A stretch of 35,112 nt of DNA from Saccoglossus kowalevskii (taxonomy: Eukaryota > Hemichordata > Enteropneusta > Harrimaniidae), in contig NW_003106594.1 in NCBI RefSeq assembly GCF_000003605.2, positions 166,027-201,138 on the forward strand. Reading direction: 5' to 3'. Below are positions 5,197-30,670 of the stretch, piece by piece (within the stretch, counting starts at the first letter, position 1; each line of letters starts with the position of its first letter). The notes below the pieces were generated by a model. It was not told the origin of the DNA and did no database searches. It saw only the letters and a program-made list of their open reading frames with translations. The translations under genes were made by a program, and so were the position numbers.

Positions 5197-5510
5197 GGAC
5201 ATGTTTCTTATAGTTCATTTTTTTCATAAATTCTTCCCCATTACGATAGATAAATGGTTATATTTCTGAGTAATTTGGAATGCTATAATAAACCATTTTG
5301 AATGATATTCATGGGTGAGCGGTATAATTACAGGATTGCAATTGATACAGACTACAAATGTACATAATAGCAAACCGTGATGGGCATACATAATAGCGTG
5401 CACACTGCTTTTAATGAAGACTAAATCATTCAATAACAAAATTTGTTGAAAATTTGTTGAATAAAATATTTAATGTTTTTGAATACGATAAACTGAGTTT
5501 ATGGACATGG
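5197..5510. repeat. Interspersed repeat, copy 2 of a closely matching pair
   Basis: Same-orientation partner of 2231-2513. It carries about 28 extra bases before the shared AACCATTTTGAAT start of the core. The core is 5291-5496. Confidence 0.85.
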
Positions 5511-7719
5511 GAATACTCTAGAAAGTATGCTACTTGTGGATTGTTTTTATATGTGTTGATATTTCACCATATAAGGCAGTGACAACATTTCTAGTAAATA
5601 TCTATAATTATTTTAGGAGAAGTGAAAAGTATCTGCTGATGCTGTTAACCTTTTCACCACCACTTTCTTGCTCAAATTTTTCTGAACTTTTTTTTTTTAT
5701 ATTTCTCAATATTTCCTATTTCCGGAAATGAACCTTATTTTGAAGCCAAAAGACAAAATTTAGATCAAATGTCGATGTTTACTCAAAACATGTGGCTATT
5801 TTTGTACCACTTTTCTGAAGCAAAGTGCAGATTATAAATGGGACTATTTTGTTAATTTGGGATAAAAAGAGGAAACTCGAACCTTAGCCATACAAATTAC
5901 TTTAAATACCGCTCGATTGTGATGATTTTTGCCGTACTTACATTCACAACTTTTACCAAACGTGTAAATTAATTACAGGGACTTTCAGCATCCCAAAACT
6001 GGCCACTAAAACATGATATGCATTTCTTTGGGATTACATATGTGTCACTCTTAAAATGAATAAAAGACGATTTTTAAAATTTGGTTCCAGTATTACAATT
6101 CATTAAGCATTGATTCATGCAAAAATAATTGTTTTCGTTTGAGTAGTTTTCGAGTAAGAGCCTACAGAATGGCAAGTGTCGCCATAGACAACTGCTAAAT
6201 CCACATTGATTCGGTAATGAATGTGACTTTGGGAACACCATGGTTGAAGTATTACATTTGACAGATGGTCACACAGCCCTGTCATTTAGTCATAAACATG
6301 ATGTGGTGTCTGTGGCAAAATATAGTGCTTGTAATTTGTAATAGAGTAATAGAGCGCATTGCATCTCAAGTGAGACTGTCTAGCCTGTGAACAAAACATA
6401 GAACAGTACAGTTTGTGCAATAGTAAACAGATTAAAATCAGTCAGCCTTGCAATCAGAACTTGCATGATGTATAACTGATATGTCTGATCGAAAATGGTT
6501 TTGTGAAATTGTTTTATTTGATGATTTTTAGCTTTATAATGAACTCCATTTGACTATTAAAATTGAAATTGATCATGAAACAAATGCACATGTGAAATTG
6601 AACATGGTTGGTCAAGACTTATCAGGGATACATGTATGTATGGCTATGGAACTGCATTCATTAAAAACCAAATGGCCAAATAACAAAAGTTTTTTTTTTT
6701 ACTTAAAAACAATCACAAACATTCTTCCCCTCTGCAAAAAAATACAGAAACAGTTGTCTTACTGATAATGAACATCCAAATAGAAAAGAATCCAGTCGCC
6801 AGGAGTAATTGCACTATTTTTATCCCTCAAAATGCACATTTTTTTCAGCTAAACATCCAATAAATCACCTGTCTTGTCTATTAGATATACGACTCCTGTA
6901 CACAATAGATATTACGCTAAAACGGCTGACCGCAAATTAATGAAATACGTGGCGTCTGATTTAAATTAAATTGCTCATAAGAAGATAAATATGTATTCAA
7001 TCTTGTTTTGTTTTTTTCCTTTTAAAAGCCAGCTAACTTTTATTTTGTCAGTTTGCAAATGACGATTTATAGACACAATTCTACTCAAGGTGATATATAA
7101 ACACTTACTCAAACTGAAATATGCTTTTCTGTGTCGTACGGCTTAAAACTTCAACCCTACTTGAAAAGCAAACCGGCTCAAATAATAAATCACTCGATGA
7201 AAGTCTCTGCGGAAAATCTTCTCTTTCATCTTTAATTGTAATCTTTAATTTATTCATTTAAAAAAACTTCATACATAATTTAACTTTATGCATGGATACA
7301 TTACATACCAAGACATAGTCACAAAATCTAAATTTTAATTCAGCAAAGCAAAACGATAAGTATATTTCAATTTGCAGAGGTAGCTGAATGACTGTGAAAA
7401 ACAAGTGTATTAGCTTCGGTAACACGCACATCCATTGACACATGACGATTCGCAAAATACTGCAAATTGTTTTCCAAGCTAGAGTTTGTAACACCTGTTT
7501 TTTTTTTCCTCCACAGCTCTACCCCAGCTGGTAATGTGTCATGAGGAGAAAATAAAACATATAGAAAATTTTTCTACGAGTTTCAGGGTAATCAGATTAC
7601 TGGTAATATAAATAAATTATACAGAAATCCTACACCTATTTTCGAGAAAGTTGTTCAGGTATCACATTGTTTATGACACGAGATCTCATATACATTAAAG
7701 CTTATTTATTGGCAAAAAA
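5511..7719. other. Gene-free AT-rich DNA
   Basis: No exon, RNA gene or transposon end recognised. Short open frames at 5534-5731, 6550-6765 and 7258-7494 have random composition. Confidence 0.45.
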
Positions 7720-7789
7720 GGGGGGCTCGACCAAAACCACAGAGCTGTTTGCTAATACAATATTAACCTATGGTCCTGGTGCGGCCCCC
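7720..7789. repeat. Small GC-rich foldback
   Basis: GGGGGGCTCGACCAAAACCA (from 7720) is an imperfect inverted copy of TGGTCCTGGTGCGGCCCCC (ending 7789). The about 70 bp hairpin is isolated in AT-rich DNA. Possibly a remnant of a foldback or MITE element. Confidence 0.5.
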
Positions 7790-10700: not shown

Positions 10701-10900
10701 TTAGAAAATAAAAAGTAATGGCATTTTTAATTGTTTACCCTAGAACACAATTTTCCCTCAGCCCAATTTTATGAGAAATCTATAATTCAATTATCACATA
10801 TCTCCCCTTAACATTGGAAAGACCGACACAACATAAATGCATGTATGTATTTTATGGAGCCATGCATGGTCATCACCAATCCTTTTTATTTGCATTTCGA
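7790..10900. other. Gene-free AT-rich DNA with one doubtful MITE remnant
   Basis: Apart from 8304-8397 nothing was recognised. The minus-strand frames 9179-9418 and 9636-9818 show no domain. Confidence 0.45.
8304..8397. mobile_element. Possible degraded TACTGTA-family MITE
   Basis: TACTGTA (8304-8310) and TACAGTA (8391-8397) form short inverted ends. Inside lies GCGAAAAT...ATTTTCG, the same kind of subterminal word seen in the copy at 31579-31798. The ends are too short to be sure. Confidence 0.35.
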
Positions 10901-11236
10901 TCAAAGTGTGCCCTCTATGGCAACTCAATCAAAGTGTGCCCTCTATGGCAACTCAATCAAAGTGTGCCCTCTATGGCAACTCAATCAAAGTGTGCCCTCT
11001 ATGGCAACTCAATCAAAGTGTGCCCTCTATGGCAACTCAATCAAAGTGTGCCCTCTATGGCAACTCAATCAAAGTGTGCCCTCTATGGCAACTCAATAAA
11101 AGTGTGCCCTCTATGGCAACTCAATAAAAGTGTGCCCTCTATGGCAACTCAATAAAAGTGTGCCCTCTATGGCAACTCAATAAAAATATGCCCTCTGTGC
11201 CAACACAATGAATTTTTGTCCTCTAAAACAAAAAAC
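10901..11236 (+). repeat. 28 bp minisatellite, about 12 units
   Basis: The unit TCAAAGTGTGCCCTCTATGG plus CAACTCAA recurs every 28 bases from 10901. Units 1-7 are essentially identical, units 8-10 begin TAAAAG (creating AATAAA at each junction), unit 11 is clearly changed and unit 12 (11209 on) is barely recognisable. The unit has no stop in any forward frame, so it produces long artefact frames that rotate every 28 codons. Confidence 0.97.
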
Positions 11237-21209: not shown

Positions 21210-21500
21210 TATTGGAGACACATTAAATATAATTCGAAATTACTTAGCTGAAAACTAATTATGCAAATCAGAAAATTAATATGACCAGATTTGAGTGTAA
21301 AACTAATGAGGTCTGCGCAATGTAACAGAAAATCTATGTCTCCAAGTTTAATTGAAATGTGATTAGAACCAAAAAATTATGAATTATTATGCTTATTAGG
21401 GAATTAATATGAACAGATTTTTACCCCAAACTAATTAGGTTTGTACATTTTCCTAGAGCATCTTTGTACTAAGTTTCATTGAAATGGAATAATTAGTGCC
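21210..21500 (+). repeat. Left part of an octamer-bearing tandem repeat array
   Basis: Two diverged units share AATTATGCAAAT, AATTAATATG, CAAGTTT.ATTGAAATG and TCTATG boxes in the same order as the array at 23181-24045. They are older-looking than the right-hand units. Confidence 0.75.
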
Positions 21501-22248
21501 GAGAAAACTTCAAAACTTCGACCCCTCTAAAAATTCGAACGCCTGTTTATTTGCCGGGTTTCGGTGTTTTATTTACCTACAAATTTTCGACTCCACTAAA
21601 AATTGCCGACTCATTCTTATTCGAAAATTGCGACCAGTTTTAGTTTTCCCCCAAACGAAAAAAAAAAAACGATGTGAGCGTTCAAACGGGACCTTCCTTG
21701 AAGGCATGAATCCGGGTTTCTGATTGACTGAGAGATTTTTATTTTATTGGTAACGAAAATATATTCTAAATAAACGAAGTTTCAAATAAAAACGAACACA
21801 AAAATCTCGGCATGCTGCGTTTCTGAATTACACCTTAAAAGTCCCATTTTATTTTCTTAAATCCCATTTTATTTTTTAATCCAAGGGCGAATTTACGGCA
21901 GAATTTGGTCCCTCAAATAAGGGACACGTGAGCTTTGATTCTAACCGGATACATTGCACTGGGTCGGGGAGATAGTTTGCTAAACTTCCATGCATCTTTT
22001 GTCCAATGGGTACCTGTACTTCGAACATTCGCAAGTTTTTCTAGGTAGTGCAAGACAGCTTTGTCTTTTGACCTATTAGTTTTGTGCTGACCTCTTCTCC
22101 GCGTCTTGGTGTTTTGTTTTGCTTGTCATAATACTCACTGATTGATGACTTTGTTTAGATTTTGAGTTACAACTCGGCCACGACCTTTGCTTTTACCGTG
22201 AAACATGAGGAAGTTTACGTCAATTGACGGACATTGCATTTTTTAAAA
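21501..22248. other. Unclassified sequence abutting the gap, possible nested insertion
   Basis: Sits between the two parts of the tandem array but does not resemble it. Two related words, TTCGACCCCTCTAAAAATT and TTTTCGACTCCACTAAAAATT, lie near 21516 and 21585. TCCCATTTTATTTT occurs twice near 21842-21873. The right end runs into the N gap, so its limit is unknown. No coding frame supported. Confidence 0.5.
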
Positions 22249-23180
22249 NNNNNNNNNNNNNNNNNNNNNNNNNNNNNNNNNNNNNNNNNNNNNNNNNNNN
22301 NNNNNNNNNNNNNNNNNNNNNNNNNNNNNNNNNNNNNNNNNNNNNNNNNNNNNNNNNNNNNNNNNNNNNNNNNNNNNNNNNNNNNNNNNNNNNNNNNNNN
22401 NNNNNNNNNNNNNNNNNNNNNNNNNNNNNNNNNNNNNNNNNNNNNNNNNNNNNNNNNNNNNNNNNNNNNNNNNNNNNNNNNNNNNNNNNNNNNNNNNNNN
22501 NNNNNNNNNNNNNNNNNNNNNNNNNNNNNNNNNNNNNNNNNNNNNNNNNNNNNNNNNNNNNNNNNNNNNNNNNNNNNNNNNNNNNNNNNNNNNNNNNNNN
22601 NNNNNNNNNNNNNNNNNNNNNNNNNNNNNNNNNNNNNNNNNNNNNNNNNNNNNNNNNNNNNNNNNNNNNNNNNNNNNNNNNNNNNNNNNNNNNNNNNNNN
22701 NNNNNNNNNNNNNNNNNNNNNNNNNNNNNNNNNNNNNNNNNNNNNNNNNNNNNNNNNNNNNNNNNNNNNNNNNNNNNNNNNNNNNNNNNNNNNNNNNNNN
22801 NNNNNNNNNNNNNNNNNNNNNNNNNNNNNNNNNNNNNNNNNNNNNNNNNNNNNNNNNNNNNNNNNNNNNNNNNNNNNNNNNNNNNNNNNNNNNNNNNNNN
22901 NNNNNNNNNNNNNNNNNNNNNNNNNNNNNNNNNNNNNNNNNNNNNNNNNNNNNNNNNNNNNNNNNNNNNNNNNNNNNNNNNNNNNNNNNNNNNNNNNNNN
23001 NNNNNNNNNNNNNNNNNNNNNNNNNNNNNNNNNNNNNNNNNNNNNNNNNNNNNNNNNNNNNNNNNNNNNNNNNNNNNNNNNNNNNNNNNNNNNNNNNNNN
23101 NNNNNNNNNNNNNNNNNNNNNNNNNNNNNNNNNNNNNNNNNNNNNNNNNNNNNNNNNNNNNNNNNNNNNNNNNNNNNNNN
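22249..23180. other. Assembly gap (932 N)
   Basis: All bases are N. The two long forward frames crossing it exist only because N contains no stop codon. It may hide more repeat units. Confidence 0.99.
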
Positions 23181-24173
23181 ATTATTTACCCTAAAACTAA
23201 TCAGGTCTCTGCATAGTCCTAAAGGATCTATGTACCAAGTTTCATTGAAATGCGATCATTAGTACTTGAGATACCCGTGGAAAAGCTGAAAATTAACTAA
23301 TTATGCAAATTAGGTGATTAATATGCACAAATATTTATCGAAAACAATCAATCTCTGCATAGTCCTTGAGTATGTAAGTACCAAGTTTCATTGAAATGTA
23401 ATGCTAACTACTTATATCAAATGCTGAAAATTAATTAATTATGCAAATTAGGTAATTAATATGTACTGATATTACCATAAAAACTATCAGGTCTGTGCAG
23501 TGTCGTATGACATCTATGTACCAAGTTTCATGAAATGTGATGATTAGTACTTGAGATATCAGTGGAAAAACCGAAAATTGACTAATCATTATGCAAATTA
23601 GGTAATTAGTATCCACGGATTATTACCAAAAACTAATCAAAACCTAGCATTAGTTCAGAGCATCTATGTACCAAGTTTCATCAAAATCCAATGAGTGGTT
23701 GTTTAGATATCAGTGGAACAGTCATGGAACCACTAAAAAATAGCTAATTATCATGCAAATTAGGTAATTAATATGCACGGATTTTTACCAAAAATTAATC
23801 AAATCTGCACATATGTTCAGAGCATCTATGTACCAAGTTTCATCAAAATCCAATGAGTGGTTCTTTAGATATCAGTGGAACAGTCATAGAACAGCTAAAA
23901 ATTAGCTAATTATCATGCAAATTAGGTAATTAACGAGCATGGATTTTTACCAAAACCTAATCAAATCTGCGCATTGGCCCAGAGCATCTATGCACCAAGT
24001 TTCATCAAAAACCGATGTATGGTTCTTGAGATAGCAGTGGAACAGTCGGACACACATACACACACACACACACATACATACACACATACATACACACACA
24101 CATACACACACACATACAGACACACTAACTGCAAAGACTCCCATTTTGTGCTTCGCACATGGGAGTCAAAAAA
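23181..24173 (+). mobile_element. Non-autonomous element: ~140-162 bp tandem units, CA microsatellite and 3' hairpin (Helentron/pearl-like architecture)
   Basis: ACCAAGTTTCAT recurs at 23234, 23380, 23520, 23670, 23832 and 23994, giving spacings of 146, 140, 150, 162 and 162. Between these boxes lie ATGCAAATTAGGTAATTAATA and ACGGATTTTTACCAAAA-type words. The three rightmost units resemble one another most. The array ends CAGTCGGACACACA, then a CA/CATA microsatellite (24049-24125), ACTGCAAAG and a hairpin GACTCCCAT-TTT-GTGC-TTC-GCAC-ATGGGAGTC (24136-24167) followed by AAAAAACTAA. The tail also occurs alone at 152-274. No coding capacity. Confidence 0.8.
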
Positions 24174-25017
24174 CTAATTTTTGTTTCAGTAAGACAACCC
24201 TACCTATTTACATGTTAACCAATAACAGCTTTGTTTGAAAGGTAATGTTTTACAGCCACTGTTATTGAATTCAGAAAATAAACAGTTGTCATTATCAATT
24301 TCTGTAAAGCGAAAAATTCTTCATCACATCAAAAATAATATTTCTTCAAGGAGGGAAGGGGCCTTAGGTTTCTGCATTGAACTAGAACTATAAGTTCCAC
24401 TCACAAAGATTATGGAGGTTATCGACACCATCTTCAAAAGTCATGTCATGTACATCTTGATAAGGAGCCTTTTAGTAAAAATGGATAAAGATCCAAAAAC
24501 ACTCACTTGAGAGCAAAAATGAACTTAAACAAACTAAATCGCATCAACTTCGCATGACCCAAAGAAAAAAGGTTTGTTTGTTTGTTGAGTCTTATACTAG
24601 TAGGCAACAAGGTGGGTTCTCATTAAAATAAATATTCCCCGTAGTCGTCAGGTGGGTATGTATTATTGAAAGTGTTGTGGTCTCGTTGTGAGAATAATTA
24701 CCATTTTGGTTTGGTATTATAAAGACTACATAAATGGCTCCAGTGGGGGTAGCCATTTTGGAATATTTTACGAATAAATTAGGAATTTAGATTCCAAATT
24801 AGATTTTACGAGTTTGTGAAAGTACAGAGGTTAAATAACCATAATAAATAATGATGGCGAGTGACAGTATTGTGAAAACACATAAAAATTCAATTACGGA
24901 ATAGATACATGTACAAGCTGTGTTTAATAAAACAAATGTAAGAGTAGGATGTGAATGTGTAGTGTGTTCGCACACTGTATTAAGTAGGGTAAAAGATGTT
25001 TATATGCAATATTCATG
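24174..25017. other. Gene-free DNA
   Basis: No exon or repeat recognised. Confidence 0.45.
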
Positions 25018-25548
25018 AACATGTGCAGGGTGTTCACACAGTGTTCACCCATGTGTAGTGTTTATCCATGCACATGTGCAGGGTGTTCACACAGTGTTCA
25101 CCCATGTGTAGTGTTTATCCATGCATATGTGCAGGGTGTTTGCACATGGTGTTCACCCATGCATATGTGCAGGGTGTTTGCACATAGTGTTCACTCATGT
25201 GCAGTGTTTATCCATGCATATGTGCAGGGTGTTCACACAGTGTTCACCCATGTGCAGTGTTTATCTCCATGCACATGTGCAGGGTGTTTGCACATAGTGT
25301 TCACCATGTGCAGTTTTTATCCATGCATATGTGCAGGGTGTTCACACAGTGTTCACCCATGTGCAGTGTTTATCCATGCACATGTGCAGGGTGTTTGCAC
25401 ATCGTGTGCAGGGTGTTCACACAGTGTTCACCCATGTGCAGTGTTTATCCATGCACATGTGCAGGGTGTTTGCACATCGTGTGCAGGGTGTGTTCACACA
25501 TAGTGTTCACCCATGTGCAGTGTTTATCCATGCACATGTGCAGGGTAT
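25018..25548 (+). repeat. 53 bp minisatellite with shortened variant units
   Basis: ATGTGCAGGGTGTTCACACA starts at 25021, 25074 and 25127, a 53-base period. Later units alternate a TTCACACAGTG form with a TTTGCACAT(A/C)GTG form and some drop the middle part. CATGTGCA recurs inside each unit, making a nested sub-repeat. Two long forward frames rich in Cys, His and Val result from the repeat having no forward stops. Confidence 0.95.
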
Positions 25549-26925
25549 TTTTAAAGAATGACAAGACGAATGGAGATTTACTGGAAAAATGGTCATTTCG
25601 TGTGTGGCAAAATGTGTGGCAGATTACACAAAGATGAATTTGATAAATCATTCTTTAGCAATATTTGCTTGTAATTCCAACACTGCCAACACCCAAACTA
25701 CAATAATTTAATGTATGTTAAATATTACAGTAAAGAAAATACGATAGGCACATGATTGAAAACCACTTCCAAATTAATCATCAACGCAGGATATGAAATA
25801 TGACTAATTAATTATAGAGACAATTAAGGTACTGTTGATAATCAGGCATGCATGATACAATTTTAATGGGTTTTTAAAAATGAAAATCATAATAGATGTA
25901 CAGTGAAGAAAATTTGACACTTTTAATTCTGGCATCAACGTTAATTAGCGAACACTTGTCATTAGCAAATATTCAATAAAATCCCATTTTGTAGCACTGT
26001 GCGGTTAGTGGATAGATCAAATTTAACTTACATTATAACGACAAAAGTGAAAAAAACAAAACAATCATTTTGTTTTTTTATTTGGAATCAGTAAATTAAG
26101 CCCATGTAAATTGAGTAACTGTCCCATTGTGAACTATTCAGATCATAAAAACCTCAAAAGCTAATAAAATACTCACTACTGTATTTCATTTATTAAAAGT
26201 ACTGGGAACTCCTTAATCTTATTCACATAAATGCATTTTCAATAGACGAAGTACGAGACCAGTTTGAGTGGCTTGAATCAGTTTTTAAATAGTACAGTAT
26301 ATAGTGTATAGAAAATAGCATTATTAAACACAATTCACTGAGTGTGGTGTACCACATCCCATCATTAAAAGCAGCTTTTTGAGGGATTTCATTCAAATCT
26401 ATTACAGTTGATATGCTACTTGTAATCTGGATGAACTTTGATTACATTCAGGATACAGTGATGAATTATATTTAGAAGACTTCATATTCATCATTTTTCA
26501 GAAACAAAAAAATTAAAAATTACACCCTTATAAAATCCAATAAATTATAATACGGATATTGAGGCCATATCAAACCCAGCGGAAAGTGTCATCTGAAAGC
26601 ATGGAAATACTTACAATTCTCTACAACCACCTGCAATAAGAAGACCCTTGGGCTTTGCGTAGATCAAACATGGCTTACTTAAAATAAAAGATAAATTATT
26701 GCGTAAAATTAATTGCAAACTAATAAGTCTTTGATAGCTGATGGATATTTGCCCGAATACCAAATACTTTTTTTATGCAAATGTATTGATCTATAACGCA
26801 GCTAGAAAAACGCTCAATATCTCAGAGTATACTTAACCCACCAAACACTAAGCCTTTAACCAAATTATGACAGTCTTTATGCAACACAAACTACAGTGAA
26901 GCAATTTGAGAATTTATTATGATCC
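25549..26925. other. Probable Sytl intron sequence, nothing recognised
   Basis: No repeat or coding exon recognised. One acceptor-donor pair at 26630-26615 (minus) is discussed as a finding. Confidence 0.4.
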
Positions 26926-27059
26926 TTAAAGGGCGGCAGTCATCGTGCCGCGTCCTGTTCGATATGGGACTCATAGCGACGTATACAATGCGTGTAAACT
27001 ACATTGTTTATTTACATGAAATTCGAACACGCACTGCGCGACGACCATCACGCTTTTAA
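26926..27059. mobile_element. MITE flanked by TTAA on both sides
   Basis: TTAA (26926-26929) and TTAA (27056-27059) flank about 126 bases. The left end AGGGCGGCAGTCATCGTGCC is an imperfect inverted copy of the right end GCGCGACGACCATCACGCTT. About 70 percent similar to 32618-32745, including ATAGCGA and ATGAAATTCGAACA. Fits a piggyBac- or Kolobok-derived MITE. Confidence 0.75.
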
Positions 27060-27803
27060 CTTTTAAATTCTATTTTTTCCCTGCCCCGAATTTTGATGTA
27101 ACATTTTTTATGTATTTTTCTATAATTTCTTCATCAATTTTGAACCAGAGGAATGTAATTTTCCATTAGCTATCAGTCTCAATCTAAATTATGACAAAAA
27201 TCTGAAACAAAGTGTGTAGTTTTATCCTTTGAATGTAAGCTGCAAAAGCTGAATGGTTTTCAAAATACTTATAGACACTACATGTATGTCACAGTGACAC
27301 TGGAATTTTTTTGTTCTCGCGAATTTGCCAAATCCTGAAAATAGTTAGCAAAACTATTATTAAATTATTTACAGAATGTTGTATTTTACTTCACTGTTTT
27401 TGGAAATCTTCAATGACTATACATCTCACGGTATATAAAAGTAGTTATTAAACACATGCTACAAAGTACAGGAAACACAATACTAAGAAAAAGTAATAAA
27501 CAGTAGTATTCATTGCCACCAAAATACATTATTGAAATAAACAAATTTTTGATTCACTGAAATAGAAAGTAACAGTAAACACAGCTTTAATTTCACACAA
27601 GAAAGATTTTTTCCATTTTTGTGAGTAAAAAAAAATTCTGTAGCCTATCATTTTCTAGGGTCCTCAAGACAAGGAGTCACAGTGACTTCAGCAAAAAATT
27701 CTGTTCGAAAAGATCCTTGAGAGAAAATGTTAACCATGCATGCATATAAGCCTGTAATGAGAAATTTAAGCAAATGTAAAATTGCATAATAAACATCTCT
27801 CAC
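27060..27803 (-). other. Start of the intron following the Sytl first coding exon
   Basis: Begins at the donor GTGAGA (27803 downward on the minus strand). No repeat or further exon recognised. Confidence 0.55.
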
Positions 27804-27913
27804 CTTACTCGTCTGTCTTCCTCTTTTTTCAATCTTTCGTCCCGTTTCAGGACATCAAGGATCTTCCGCTGCTCTTCCTCGGTGAGAAAACTCAAGTCCA
27901 TTATCCCGGACAT
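27804..27913 (-). CDS. Sytl: First coding exon of a synaptotagmin-like protein (Slp/Sytl), N-terminal Rab-binding helix; partial gene
   Basis: The minus strand encodes 36 codons plus two bases of a split codon. It starts MSGIMDLSFLTEEEQ and ends with DERLKKEEDRRV plus AG, probably Arg. Family knowledge: Slp/granuphilin proteins begin with a Slp homology domain whose long first helix carries the signature DLSFLTEEEQ...VLxRDxxLKKxED+R(I/V)R. It binds Rab27 on secretory vesicles, and C-terminal C2 domains bind membrane lipids. Seen here: hydrophobic LSFL, an acidic cluster, then a highly charged amphipathic helix, matching Slp1/2 (LSFLTEEEQ) and Slp5 (LKRDE.LKK.ED). Two in-frame Met codons occur; the second (codon 5) has the better context, with A at -3 and G at +4. 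The exon ends at AAG|GTGAGA (27803 is the first intron base); an alternative donor CGA|GTAAGG lies 5 bases earlier. The zinc finger (if present), the SGxWF-type segment and the C2 domains are not visible here. Paralogue assignment is uncertain. Confidence 0.88.
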
Positions 27914-27962
27914 TCCGAATGCGATTGGGATCGGGAAAATAAACCACTAGGCACCTCTTGCT
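27914..27962 (-). other. 5' UTR part of the Sytl first coding exon with splice acceptor
   Basis: Reading the minus strand, a pyrimidine-rich tract (TTCTGTTCTATGCAG) ends in AG at 27961. The exon would then start at 27960 and give 47 bases of 5' UTR before the first ATG. A TAG in the same frame (12 codons upstream of the ATG) closes the frame, so the Met at 27913 or the one at 27901 must be the start. This implies at least one non-coding exon further upstream, at higher coordinates. If transcription instead starts locally, the acceptor would be coincidental. Confidence 0.55.
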
Positions 27963-28661
27963 GCATAGAACAGAATTAAAAAATACCTCCGCAACGACGT
28001 GTTATTATTTTCTTTTTTTGTTTGTTCAAATTAACAAAATTAATGAACTATAGACAAAAACTAATTAGCTTTGGGGTGTTCCATTGTTGATGAAATGCAG
28101 GCACGTCTGACTTTGGCAGTGTTTGATTACTAAGGCCGCTCTCAGTCCATAAAATGTACACAGATGCATAGATGTGCAAGACGTTGCATAGATTTATCGC
28201 TTTAATATGACAGCTGAGTTATCTGTCAATATCACCTTAGTACAACGAAAGCTGAAAGTACTTTCTCGATAACAGATCTCTCGCTAATGCTTTCAATTCC
28301 ACAGCTGATTACAAGTGTTCCAGGATTTTCAAAATCCCCTGACGTTCAATACATTCTGGCTAGAATCCTCTAACAGCAGAGTTGGAAAACATCTATGATC
28401 CAGGATAGATAATACACTTTCCAATTGATAGACTCAATATGCGATGACCTCGTCAATTACAATGACAACGGGTTGGTTATAATACTGCTGGCACTAAGCA
28501 CTGTGGTTCAGCGCATCGGGGTAATTTCAACATGCAATTTAGCTAACAGCTAATCCACTTGTGAAAGCTTCAAGGTAATTTCCGATTAATCCAAATGATA
28601 GAATTGAAGGTGTTCCGTGATCAGTCACAGTGAGGACCGTTCACTTCATGTGACGGGATAC
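27961..28661 (-). other. Probable 5' UTR intron or promoter-proximal DNA of the Sytl gene
   Basis: No coding frame or repeat recognised. It lies between the acceptor of the first coding exon and the candidate upstream exon. Base composition is closer to balanced from about 28280 onward. Confidence 0.3.
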
Positions 28662-28841
28662 CTTTCAAGCACTATTACCGACGGTGACAGTCAACAATGC
28701 GTGCGGCGCAAACCAGTTTTCTGCTTTGACAGTTCCTCCCTGATCTGCTAACTGAGTACTAACAGGATAGGCTAGAGATAGATCCACTCAAGTCACATAG
28801 CTGTCCCATCGCTTGCCGTGTTGTCCTCGCAGCCTGCACTT
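28662..28841 (-). other. Candidate non-coding 5' UTR exon or promoter-proximal block of the Sytl gene
   Basis: This stretch is visibly less AT-rich than its surroundings. On the minus strand it is preceded by a strong acceptor-like tract (CTATTTGTCCTCATTTCAG, AG at 28843-28842) and ends at AAAG|GTATCC (28662/28661); another possible donor is TCG|GTAATA near 28679. It holds no long open frame. Its place about 0.7 kb upstream of the first coding exon, which itself appears to have an acceptor, fits an untranslated exon. The evidence is splice-like motifs and base composition only. Confidence 0.25.
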
Positions 28842-30670
28842 CTGAAATGAGGACAAATAGAGTGTTTCAACTACGTGATGACAATAGAAACTATGCAAGC
28901 CTATTGTTATGCTAATTAACCTGCATATAGAAAGCCCCACAACACATGGGTGGGGAGAATGCAAATAGCTGGTAATTCATCAAAAGCCTCTTCAATAAAG
29001 AATAAAGCCATGAAACACTGTTTACAAACAATACCCACGTCTACCTACACCTGATAACACAATAGCAGTACGTTTACTACTAAACACAACCACATGCACT
29101 GCCTACCTGTAAAAAGTGCAAAAGTCAGCTAGTATTCACGGAGGCCCAATTATAACTAAAACCTGATATGGCTGAATTTGGCCTCGTTTCATAAACAGAC
29201 ACAGGAATTTCTGCCCAGTTCATGAATTGCAAATTTCAGCCACAAAGGACATTGCACAGTTCAGGTAATAAACTGAGACATACACTAAATACCTATGTGA
29301 GTCACCACGGACCACTGAGAAGGAGATACAGTTTTGTAGGGTGTTTTTTCCCCAGAAGGCATAAAAGTGTCCATTGCAATTAAGTCACAGCAACTTATTT
29401 CTGAACTAAATATTAAATATTTTTTCCTCAATCCAGTTTATTCATTTGTTGATTTTTTTATAATTCTGAAATTTATATTTAAAAGAACAAAGTTTAAATA
29501 TTGCTGAATTATATTTTATACAAATTGAAGGTATATTCATAATAGGGGTTGACCATCTGACACTGAGGGTGGAGATGCCAGAGAGCACCTCTGCAAAATA
29601 CTCTTTTCCTATTAGAAGTATTTCTGATGGGAGCGGGAAGGATAAAGTACCCCTAACGAGAGATTCAATTGGATGATATCATGCAACATGTCTGGAGTTA
29701 TGAATTGTAAACCAATAGGAAATGACTTCACTCACTATATTTTGAGAGAGCTTAGGGGAGGGAGGAAAGGACAATAAACAGAATGGCGAGATTTGTAGCA
29801 TAATTCAAGACTTGTCAAATTAGGGCTAAGTACTTGCGGAATGTACATCACTTGTTAGAAAACTCAGTCACGCATAACGAACATTTGTCAAGCCAAACCT
29901 TTTTTGTAAATGTTGAAATGAAATCTTGAGAGGTCAGGTTATCCACACTGTTGCAACTCACTGAGAAATCAGAAAGTCAGTGATGGGAAATCATACAAAT
30001 AACTGCTTAATTTTATACAAATTAAAAGATAGTTTGTTAGTTTTTGTTATGATATAACATTTCCTGGATTATTCTCATTAACCACAACCACTCTAAATAA
30101 GCATTGGCAGAGTAAAATTTGCAGCAATCTACTGTATACTCTAATGCTGTACAAAAAGCCAATGTCAACTTTTGGCAATGTTCCCAACTTTTTTCAGATA
30201 TTTTCAACAATTTTGATTAACATCTGTAGGAAATGAGCAATTATATCCATTTAATTCAAAATTAACAAAATATTTATAAAAAAATCTGTAAAAAAATGTG
30301 CAAAATGTTGAATGAAAATTGTGGCGGGAAAACAATTTTGCACTCAAAAAGGTTAGACATTATATATCGATACCATATAAAAATCTGAAGAGTTTTATTT
30401 ATGAATTTGAGTAATATCTATAAAGCATCATAAATTTTTTTATTTTATACAATCCTGAAGCTTATCGATCAATACAGATGAAATTGCTATGAATAAAAGT
30501 TTAATTTCTCACAAAAAGTTAACCTCATATTTAGCTATATATTTTGTAAAGTAATCTATTTCAAGGTGTCACAAAAAATCCAATCATGAGCATGATTTAA
30601 CTGATCTTAATCATATTCATTATTATGGTAATTAAGGAAATGAAAGTACCCTCCAGTGATGCGAAAAAAA

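What the first reader, a model, noticed from the sequence alone, without database searches (positions are those of the whole stretch)
27804..27960. A short Slp/Sytl coding exon hidden in 35 kb of repeat-rich DNA
The only clear protein-coding signal is a 110-base minus-strand exon. It has the Rab27-binding signature DLSFLTEEEQ, a VLKRDE/LKKEED helix, an upstream in-frame stop, an acceptor and a good donor. A gene finder using long open frames would miss it. Its sequence mixes Slp1/2-like (LSFLTEEEQ) and Slp5-like (LKRDE.LKK) features, as expected of an invertebrate pre-duplication Slp.
Basis: partly seen in the sequence, partly recalled or inferred. Interest (0 to 1): 0.7.

Follow-up and report, generated by a model that had tools for sequence, protein, structure and literature searches.

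The report
First coding exon of Slp gene
A short stretch of what looks like animal DNA encodes the start of an ordinary secretory-vesicle protein, the helix by which synaptotagmin-like proteins grip the small GTPase Rab27; the rest of the gene was not found in this piece of DNA.

Summary
Minus strand 27960-27804 reads as a 157-base exon: acceptor AG at 27962-27961, in-frame TAG at 27949-27947, ATG at 27913, 110 coding bases, donor GTGAGA at 27803. The peptide MSGIMDLSFLTEEEQRKILDVLKRDERLKKEEDRRV(R/S) matches Rab27-bound Slp2 constructs in the PDB (E about 0.001) and the first helix of Pfam FYVE_2 (E 1.4e-4, below the curated cut-off). Its profile score, 86.6, exceeds the largest of 200 simulated windows, 28.9. 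Against recalled references Slp1, 2, 4 and 5 score 100-107, exophilin-5 and Slac2 75-85, Slp3 68, rabphilin 48. Most likely this is the first coding exon of an Slp (SYTL) gene. No zinc-finger, SHD2 or C2 exon was found downstream in the window, apart from an unreadable 932-base gap, so the next exon lies in that gap, beyond the window, or is missing. 'Invertebrate, pre-duplication' fits but is not shown: the host was not identified and 37 residues cannot place a paralogue. A correct catch of an ordinary exon.

The parts
27804..27960 (-). Exon of 157 bases: 47 bases of 5' untranslated sequence and 110 coding bases
   Evidence: sequence and frames; splice-site ranks
27804..27913 (-). Coding part: MSGIMDLSFLTEEEQRKILDVLKRDERLKKEEDRRV + AG (phase-2 end); Rab27-binding SHD1 helix of an Slp-type protein
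   Evidence: PDB phmmer; Pfam FYVE_2; tblastn with recalled references; profile null; helix 12-35 in AlphaFold model
27947..27949 (-). In-frame stop TAG upstream of the start codon, inside the exon
   Evidence: third frame
27961..27980 (-). Splice acceptor with T-rich tract, TTTAATTCTGTTCTATGCAG
   Evidence: sequence: top 2.3% of 3,247 AG sites, no other AG in the 13 bases before its CAG
27798..27803 (-). Splice donor GTGAGA
   Evidence: sequence: rank 4 of 3,807 GT sites

Best explanation
This is the first coding exon of a synaptotagmin-like protein (Slp/SYTL) gene in an animal genome, transcribed on the minus strand. The mRNA would join at least one untranslated exon at higher coordinates to this exon. 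Translation starts at the first in-frame ATG (MSGIMDLSFL...). The exon then splices, in phase 2, to exons that lie beyond the window (more than 27.8 kb away) or, for one of them, in the 932-base gap; these should encode the rest of the Slp homology domain and two C2 domains. The encoded helix should bind the switch region of GTP-Rab27 on secretory vesicles, so that the C2 domains can tether the vesicle to the plasma membrane. Shown here: exon anatomy and resemblance of the helix. Inferred: splicing, the remaining exons, Rab27 binding, tethering.
For: PDB sequence search: the five best of 8 distinct sequences are all Slp2-Rab27A constructs (E 0.001-0.0014; 0.0006-0.0009 for the 33-residue version), followed by the Slp2 chain 3bc1_B (0.1) and melanophilin 2zet_C (0.14). 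Pfam FYVE_2 profile positions 2-29 of 118, E 1.4e-4, 22.5 bits, curated cut-off 27.2. tblastn with recalled human SHDs against the window: SYTL2 7e-10, SYTL4 5e-9, SYTL5 3e-8, each best at this exon. Profile null. Good donor and acceptor and an in-frame upstream stop. GC 0.46 in 27800-27999 against 0.33 for the window, third-position GC of the coding part 0.58. Single helix, mean pLDDT 90.3. PMC11231147 (passages) names the SHD1 helix as a major contact with Rab27B switch 2 in the melanophilin complex.
Against: No remainder of the domain and no C2 exon in the 27.8 kb downstream on the minus strand: 0 of 135 frames of 36 aa or more match a C2 or FYVE_2 model at E 0.05 or better, and no convincing tblastn piece. 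Slp membership therefore rests on 37 residues. The Pfam score is below the curated cut-off, and three unrelated families also match weakly (E 0.041-0.13). Splice weights and most references are recalled. A helix from a short charged peptide is weak evidence. CpG o/e at the exon (1.20) is above the window's 0.58 but a nearby bin without the exon is higher (27000-27199, 1.63). No transcript evidence.
Confidence: 0.85

Rival explanations
1. First coding exon of a C2-less Rab27 effector of the Slac2/exophilin type (melanophilin, MYRIP or exophilin-5 like), with the same Rab27-binding helix but a different C-terminal half.
For: Same SHD1 family; EXPH5 85, MLPH 76, MYRIP 75 in local BLOSUM62 score, all above Slp3 at 68; melanophilin 2zet_C found at E 0.14; no C2 exon seen in the window.
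Against: Slp4, Slp2, Slp1 and Slp5 all score higher (107, 104, 102, 100, recalled references). SFLTEEEQ is exact in the Slp2 constructs.
Confidence: 0.1
2. An orphaned exon: a fragment of an Slp gene left by duplication or rearrangement, with no downstream gene.
For: No further exon found in 27.8 kb downstream.
Against: Open frame, intact start, good donor and acceptor, no disabling change visible; a long first intron, or an exon in the gap, explains the distance as well.
Confidence: 0.04
3. Chance resemblance in non-coding DNA.
For: Pfam score lies below the curated cut-off (22.5 against 27.2 bits); the peptide is charged and helix-prone, a type that collects spurious matches; a degenerate DLSFLTEEEQ pattern also turns up once, in an unrelated protein, in the prokaryote collection.
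Against: 86.6 against a largest value of 28.9 in 200 simulated windows; the same pattern occurs once in the window and in 0 of 100 shuffles; fitting splice sites and start.
Confidence: 0.01

Closest known systems
Slp2-a / SYTL2 (Rab27A complexes 3BC1, 7OPP-7OPR, 8P3G-8P3K)
   Same: SFLTEEEQ identical; the helix aligns without gaps over 29 residues
   Different: Middle of the helix (RDE) and its K/R-rich end resemble recalled Slp4/Slp5 more; only the first 37 residues are known here
Slp4 / granuphilin and Slp5 (SYTL4, SYTL5; sequences recalled)
   Same: 20 of 37 and 21 of 36 aligned residues identical; in recalled Slp4 the DLSFL stretch lies at the same distance from the first Met
   Different: TEEEQ instead of SEEER or DHEK; the zinc finger of Slp4/5 was not found in the window
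Melanophilin / Slac2-a (2ZET) and MYRIP
   Same: Same kind of SHD1 helix (PMC11231147 passages)
   Different: Lower score (76 and 75 against 100-107); they lack C2 domains (PMC10153138 passages, for Slac2)
Drosophila Bitesize (Btsz)
   Same: An invertebrate Slp; [quoted passage not shown]
   Different: No Btsz sequence was compared here

Membership tests
Synaptotagmin-like proteins (Slp/SYTL) | N-terminal SHD1 Rab27-binding helix | tested here: met
   By sequence; helix model. Pfam score below the curated cut-off, only the first helix being present
Synaptotagmin-like proteins (Slp/SYTL) | SHD2 (SGxWF/Y region), with or without an intervening zinc finger | tested here: inconclusive
   Not found in the window: no minus-strand match to the SHD2 or zinc-finger patterns, no second FYVE_2 frame; expected in exons outside it
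Synaptotagmin-like proteins (Slp/SYTL) | Two C-terminal C2 domains (C2A, C2B) | tested here: inconclusive
   Not found in the window; scaffold beyond the window could not be read
Synaptotagmin-like proteins (Slp/SYTL) | Binding to GTP-Rab27 | not testable with these tools
   Needs a binding assay
Slac2 (melanophilin, MYRIP) / exophilin-5 | SHD1 helix closer to Slac2 or exophilin-5 than to Slp | tested here: not met
   75-85 against 100-107 for Slp1, 2, 4, 5, but Slp3 is lower (68); references recalled, short peptide, so weak
Rabphilin / Noc2 | RabBD of rabphilin type | tested here: not met
   rabphilin 48, lowest of nine recalled references; Noc2 not compared

The most novel reading that the evidence does not exclude
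Without splicing at 27803 the frame stops at once (AGG TGA; the stop-free frame 27803-27946 ends there), so an intron-retained or prematurely ended transcript would encode a complete 37-residue stand-alone Rab27-binding helix, MSGIM...RRVR. Such a micropeptide could compete with full Slp proteins for Rab27. The sequence permits this; nothing here shows that such a transcript exists.
Probability: 0.02. Interest if true: 0.45.

Novelty: new member of a known kind. Interest (0 to 1): 0.12.

Why it matters
It looks like an ordinary gene of animal secretion. Its practical value is as a reminder that a 110-base coding exon far from its neighbours is easily missed by gene finders based on long frames. 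If the host is an invertebrate, the peptide adds one more data point on the Rab27-binding helix outside the vertebrate Slp1-5 set.

Tried and rejected
Downstream exons were sought three ways on the minus strand: tblastn with recalled Slp domains, motif scan, and Pfam on the 135 stop-free frames of 36 aa or more that end at or below 27803 and hold no N. None convinced. Shorter frames were covered only, and the 932-base gap at 22249-23180 cannot be searched. Results looked at and rejected: SYTL4 zinc finger against 25380-25493 (E 0.002) is on the plus strand, has two gaps, and is the Cys-rich translation of a tandem repeat array; the zinc-finger pattern hits the same array. The best C2 piece has E 0.87, plus strand (7691-7738). 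Minus-strand SHD pieces at 9005-8967 (E 0.47) and 18656-18567 (E 0.50, with a stop inside) and C2 piece 18506-18426 (E 2.6) are at chance level. A loose linker pattern matches once on the minus strand (14980) and the SHD2 pattern once on the plus strand (15650), neither with supporting context. Weak Pfam matches: 8 families, one frame each, best 0.0052 (PRT_C), among them a zinc knuckle (0.0087); 14 families, best 0.0019, among them a B-box model (0.0076); besides this exon: 2 families (0.031, 0.044). I took these as chance.

Relatives: a degenerate DLSFLTEEEQ DNA pattern gave 0 matches in viral contigs and 1 in genome contigs, a bacterial protein with unrelated context. A repeat motif from the window gave 0 matches in viral contigs. 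The host could not be named. CpG o/e 0.58 with TpG o/e 1.32 fits many invertebrates (recalled) but decides nothing. No Rfam family at gathering threshold, no tRNA found (bacterial settings).

Literature: five searches. Judged by title and start of abstract, none of the listed rows (20 of 160, 4 of 4, 10 of 14, 15 of 8,280, 8 of 9) is about the exon structure or early evolution of Slp genes. I saw passages of five papers and the whole text of none. For PMC9988257 the search listing counted E14A twice but the main text as held gave none. PMC2823689 collects related genes but had 0 mentions of Slp or Sytl.

Full report
What is there. On the minus strand, positions 27960 to 27804 form a 157-base exon. 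It follows a TTCTATGCAG acceptor and ends at AAG|GTGAGA. In the coding frame there is a TAG at 27949-27947, then eleven sense codons, then ATG at 27913. The coding part, 110 bases, gives MSGIMDLSFLTEEEQRKILDVLKRDERLKKEEDRRV and two bases (AG) of a codon completed by the next exon. The donor ranks 4 of 3,807 GT sites and the acceptor lies in the top 2.3% of 3,247 AG sites under recalled consensus weights. GC at third positions is 0.58 against 0.33 for the window. CpG o/e is 1.20 in 27800-27999 against 0.58 for the window, but this is no clean marker: the bin 27000-27199 reaches 1.63.

Is it more than chance? Yes. A profile from eight recalled mammalian RabBD helices scores the site 86.6; the next best place in six frames scores 9.25, and the best score in any of 200 simulated windows is 28.9. 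A degenerate DNA pattern for DLSFLTEEEQ occurs once in the window and in none of 100 shuffles. The same pattern occurs once in the prokaryote genome collection, in an unrelated protein, so the pattern alone is not proof; the whole helix together with the exon anatomy is the argument.

What it is. The PDB search returns 8 distinct sequences up to E 10: five Slp2-Rab27A constructs at 0.001-0.0014, the Slp2 chain 3bc1_B at 0.1, melanophilin at 0.14 and an unrelated amylase at 0.6. The best alignment runs without gaps over 29 residues. Pfam gives FYVE_2 positions 2-29 of 118, E 1.4e-4, 22.5 bits against a curated cut-off of 27.2, as might be expected when only the first helix is present; three unrelated families follow at E 0.041-0.13. 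Against nine recalled references the scores are SYTL4 107, SYTL2 104, SYTL1 102, SYTL5 100, EXPH5 85, MLPH 76, MYRIP 75, SYTL3 68, RPH3A 48. So Slp fits best, with no single paralogue preferred and with Slp3 an exception to a clean Slp-above-Slac2 order. AlphaFold without an alignment gives one helix, residues 12-35, mean pLDDT 90.3, as expected for SHD1; a short charged peptide would often give a helix, so this adds little.

Where is the rest? Nothing found downstream in the window continues the gene: 0 of 135 minus-strand frames of 36 aa or more match FYVE_2 or C2 models at E 0.05 or better, and tblastn and motif scans gave nothing convincing. The 932-base gap (22249-23180) and very short exons are not excluded. 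Elsewhere, 134 plus-strand frames and 31 further minus-strand frames of 43 aa or more gave only weak, unrelated matches besides this exon. If the gene is whole and no exon hides in the gap, its first coding intron exceeds 27.8 kb. The in-frame stop and the acceptor imply that exons further upstream are untranslated; I did not identify one.

How it most likely works. PMC11231147 (passages) describes the SHD1 helix of melanophilin as a major contact with Rab27B switch 2, and PMC10153138 (passages) describes vertebrate Slps as an N-terminal SHD plus two C2 domains, the SHD binding Rab27 and the C2 domains binding membrane. By that analogy this exon encodes the Rab27-gripping helix of a vesicle tether. 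Binding and tethering are inferred, not shown.

The invertebrate claim. Near-equal distance to Slp1, 2, 4 and 5 is what an unduplicated Slp would show, and also what 37 residues would show by lack of signal. The host was not identified: the own-genome search did not complete. I therefore leave that part open.

Verdict. A sound first-stage catch of an ordinary animal exon: new member of a known kind, low interest.

Noticed in passing
10900-11209: Minisatellite of 28-base units, about 11 copies, 97% alike; all three plus-strand frames stay open for 95-126 aa across it, which makes false ORFs.
   Followed up: no
24996-25550: Tandem array with units of 38 to 109 bases and a Cys-rich open plus-strand translation (171 and 149 aa) that mimics a zinc finger in tblastn.
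   Followed up: partly
21253-24048: Diverged repeat with ATTATGCAAATTAGGTAATTAATATG and CTATGTACCAAGTTTCATCAAA, copies on both sides of the N gap, including three 162-base copies at 23563-24048. One motif of it had 0 matches in viral contigs.
   Followed up: partly
2312-2447 and 5319-5454: Two 136-base copies, 95% identical, 3 kb apart: a dispersed repeat.
   Followed up: no
28400-28999: GC-richer stretch (0.395-0.47 in 200-base bins) upstream of the exon on the minus strand, with an acceptor-like TTTCAG at 28847-28842; a possible 5' untranslated exon or promoter region.
   Followed up: no
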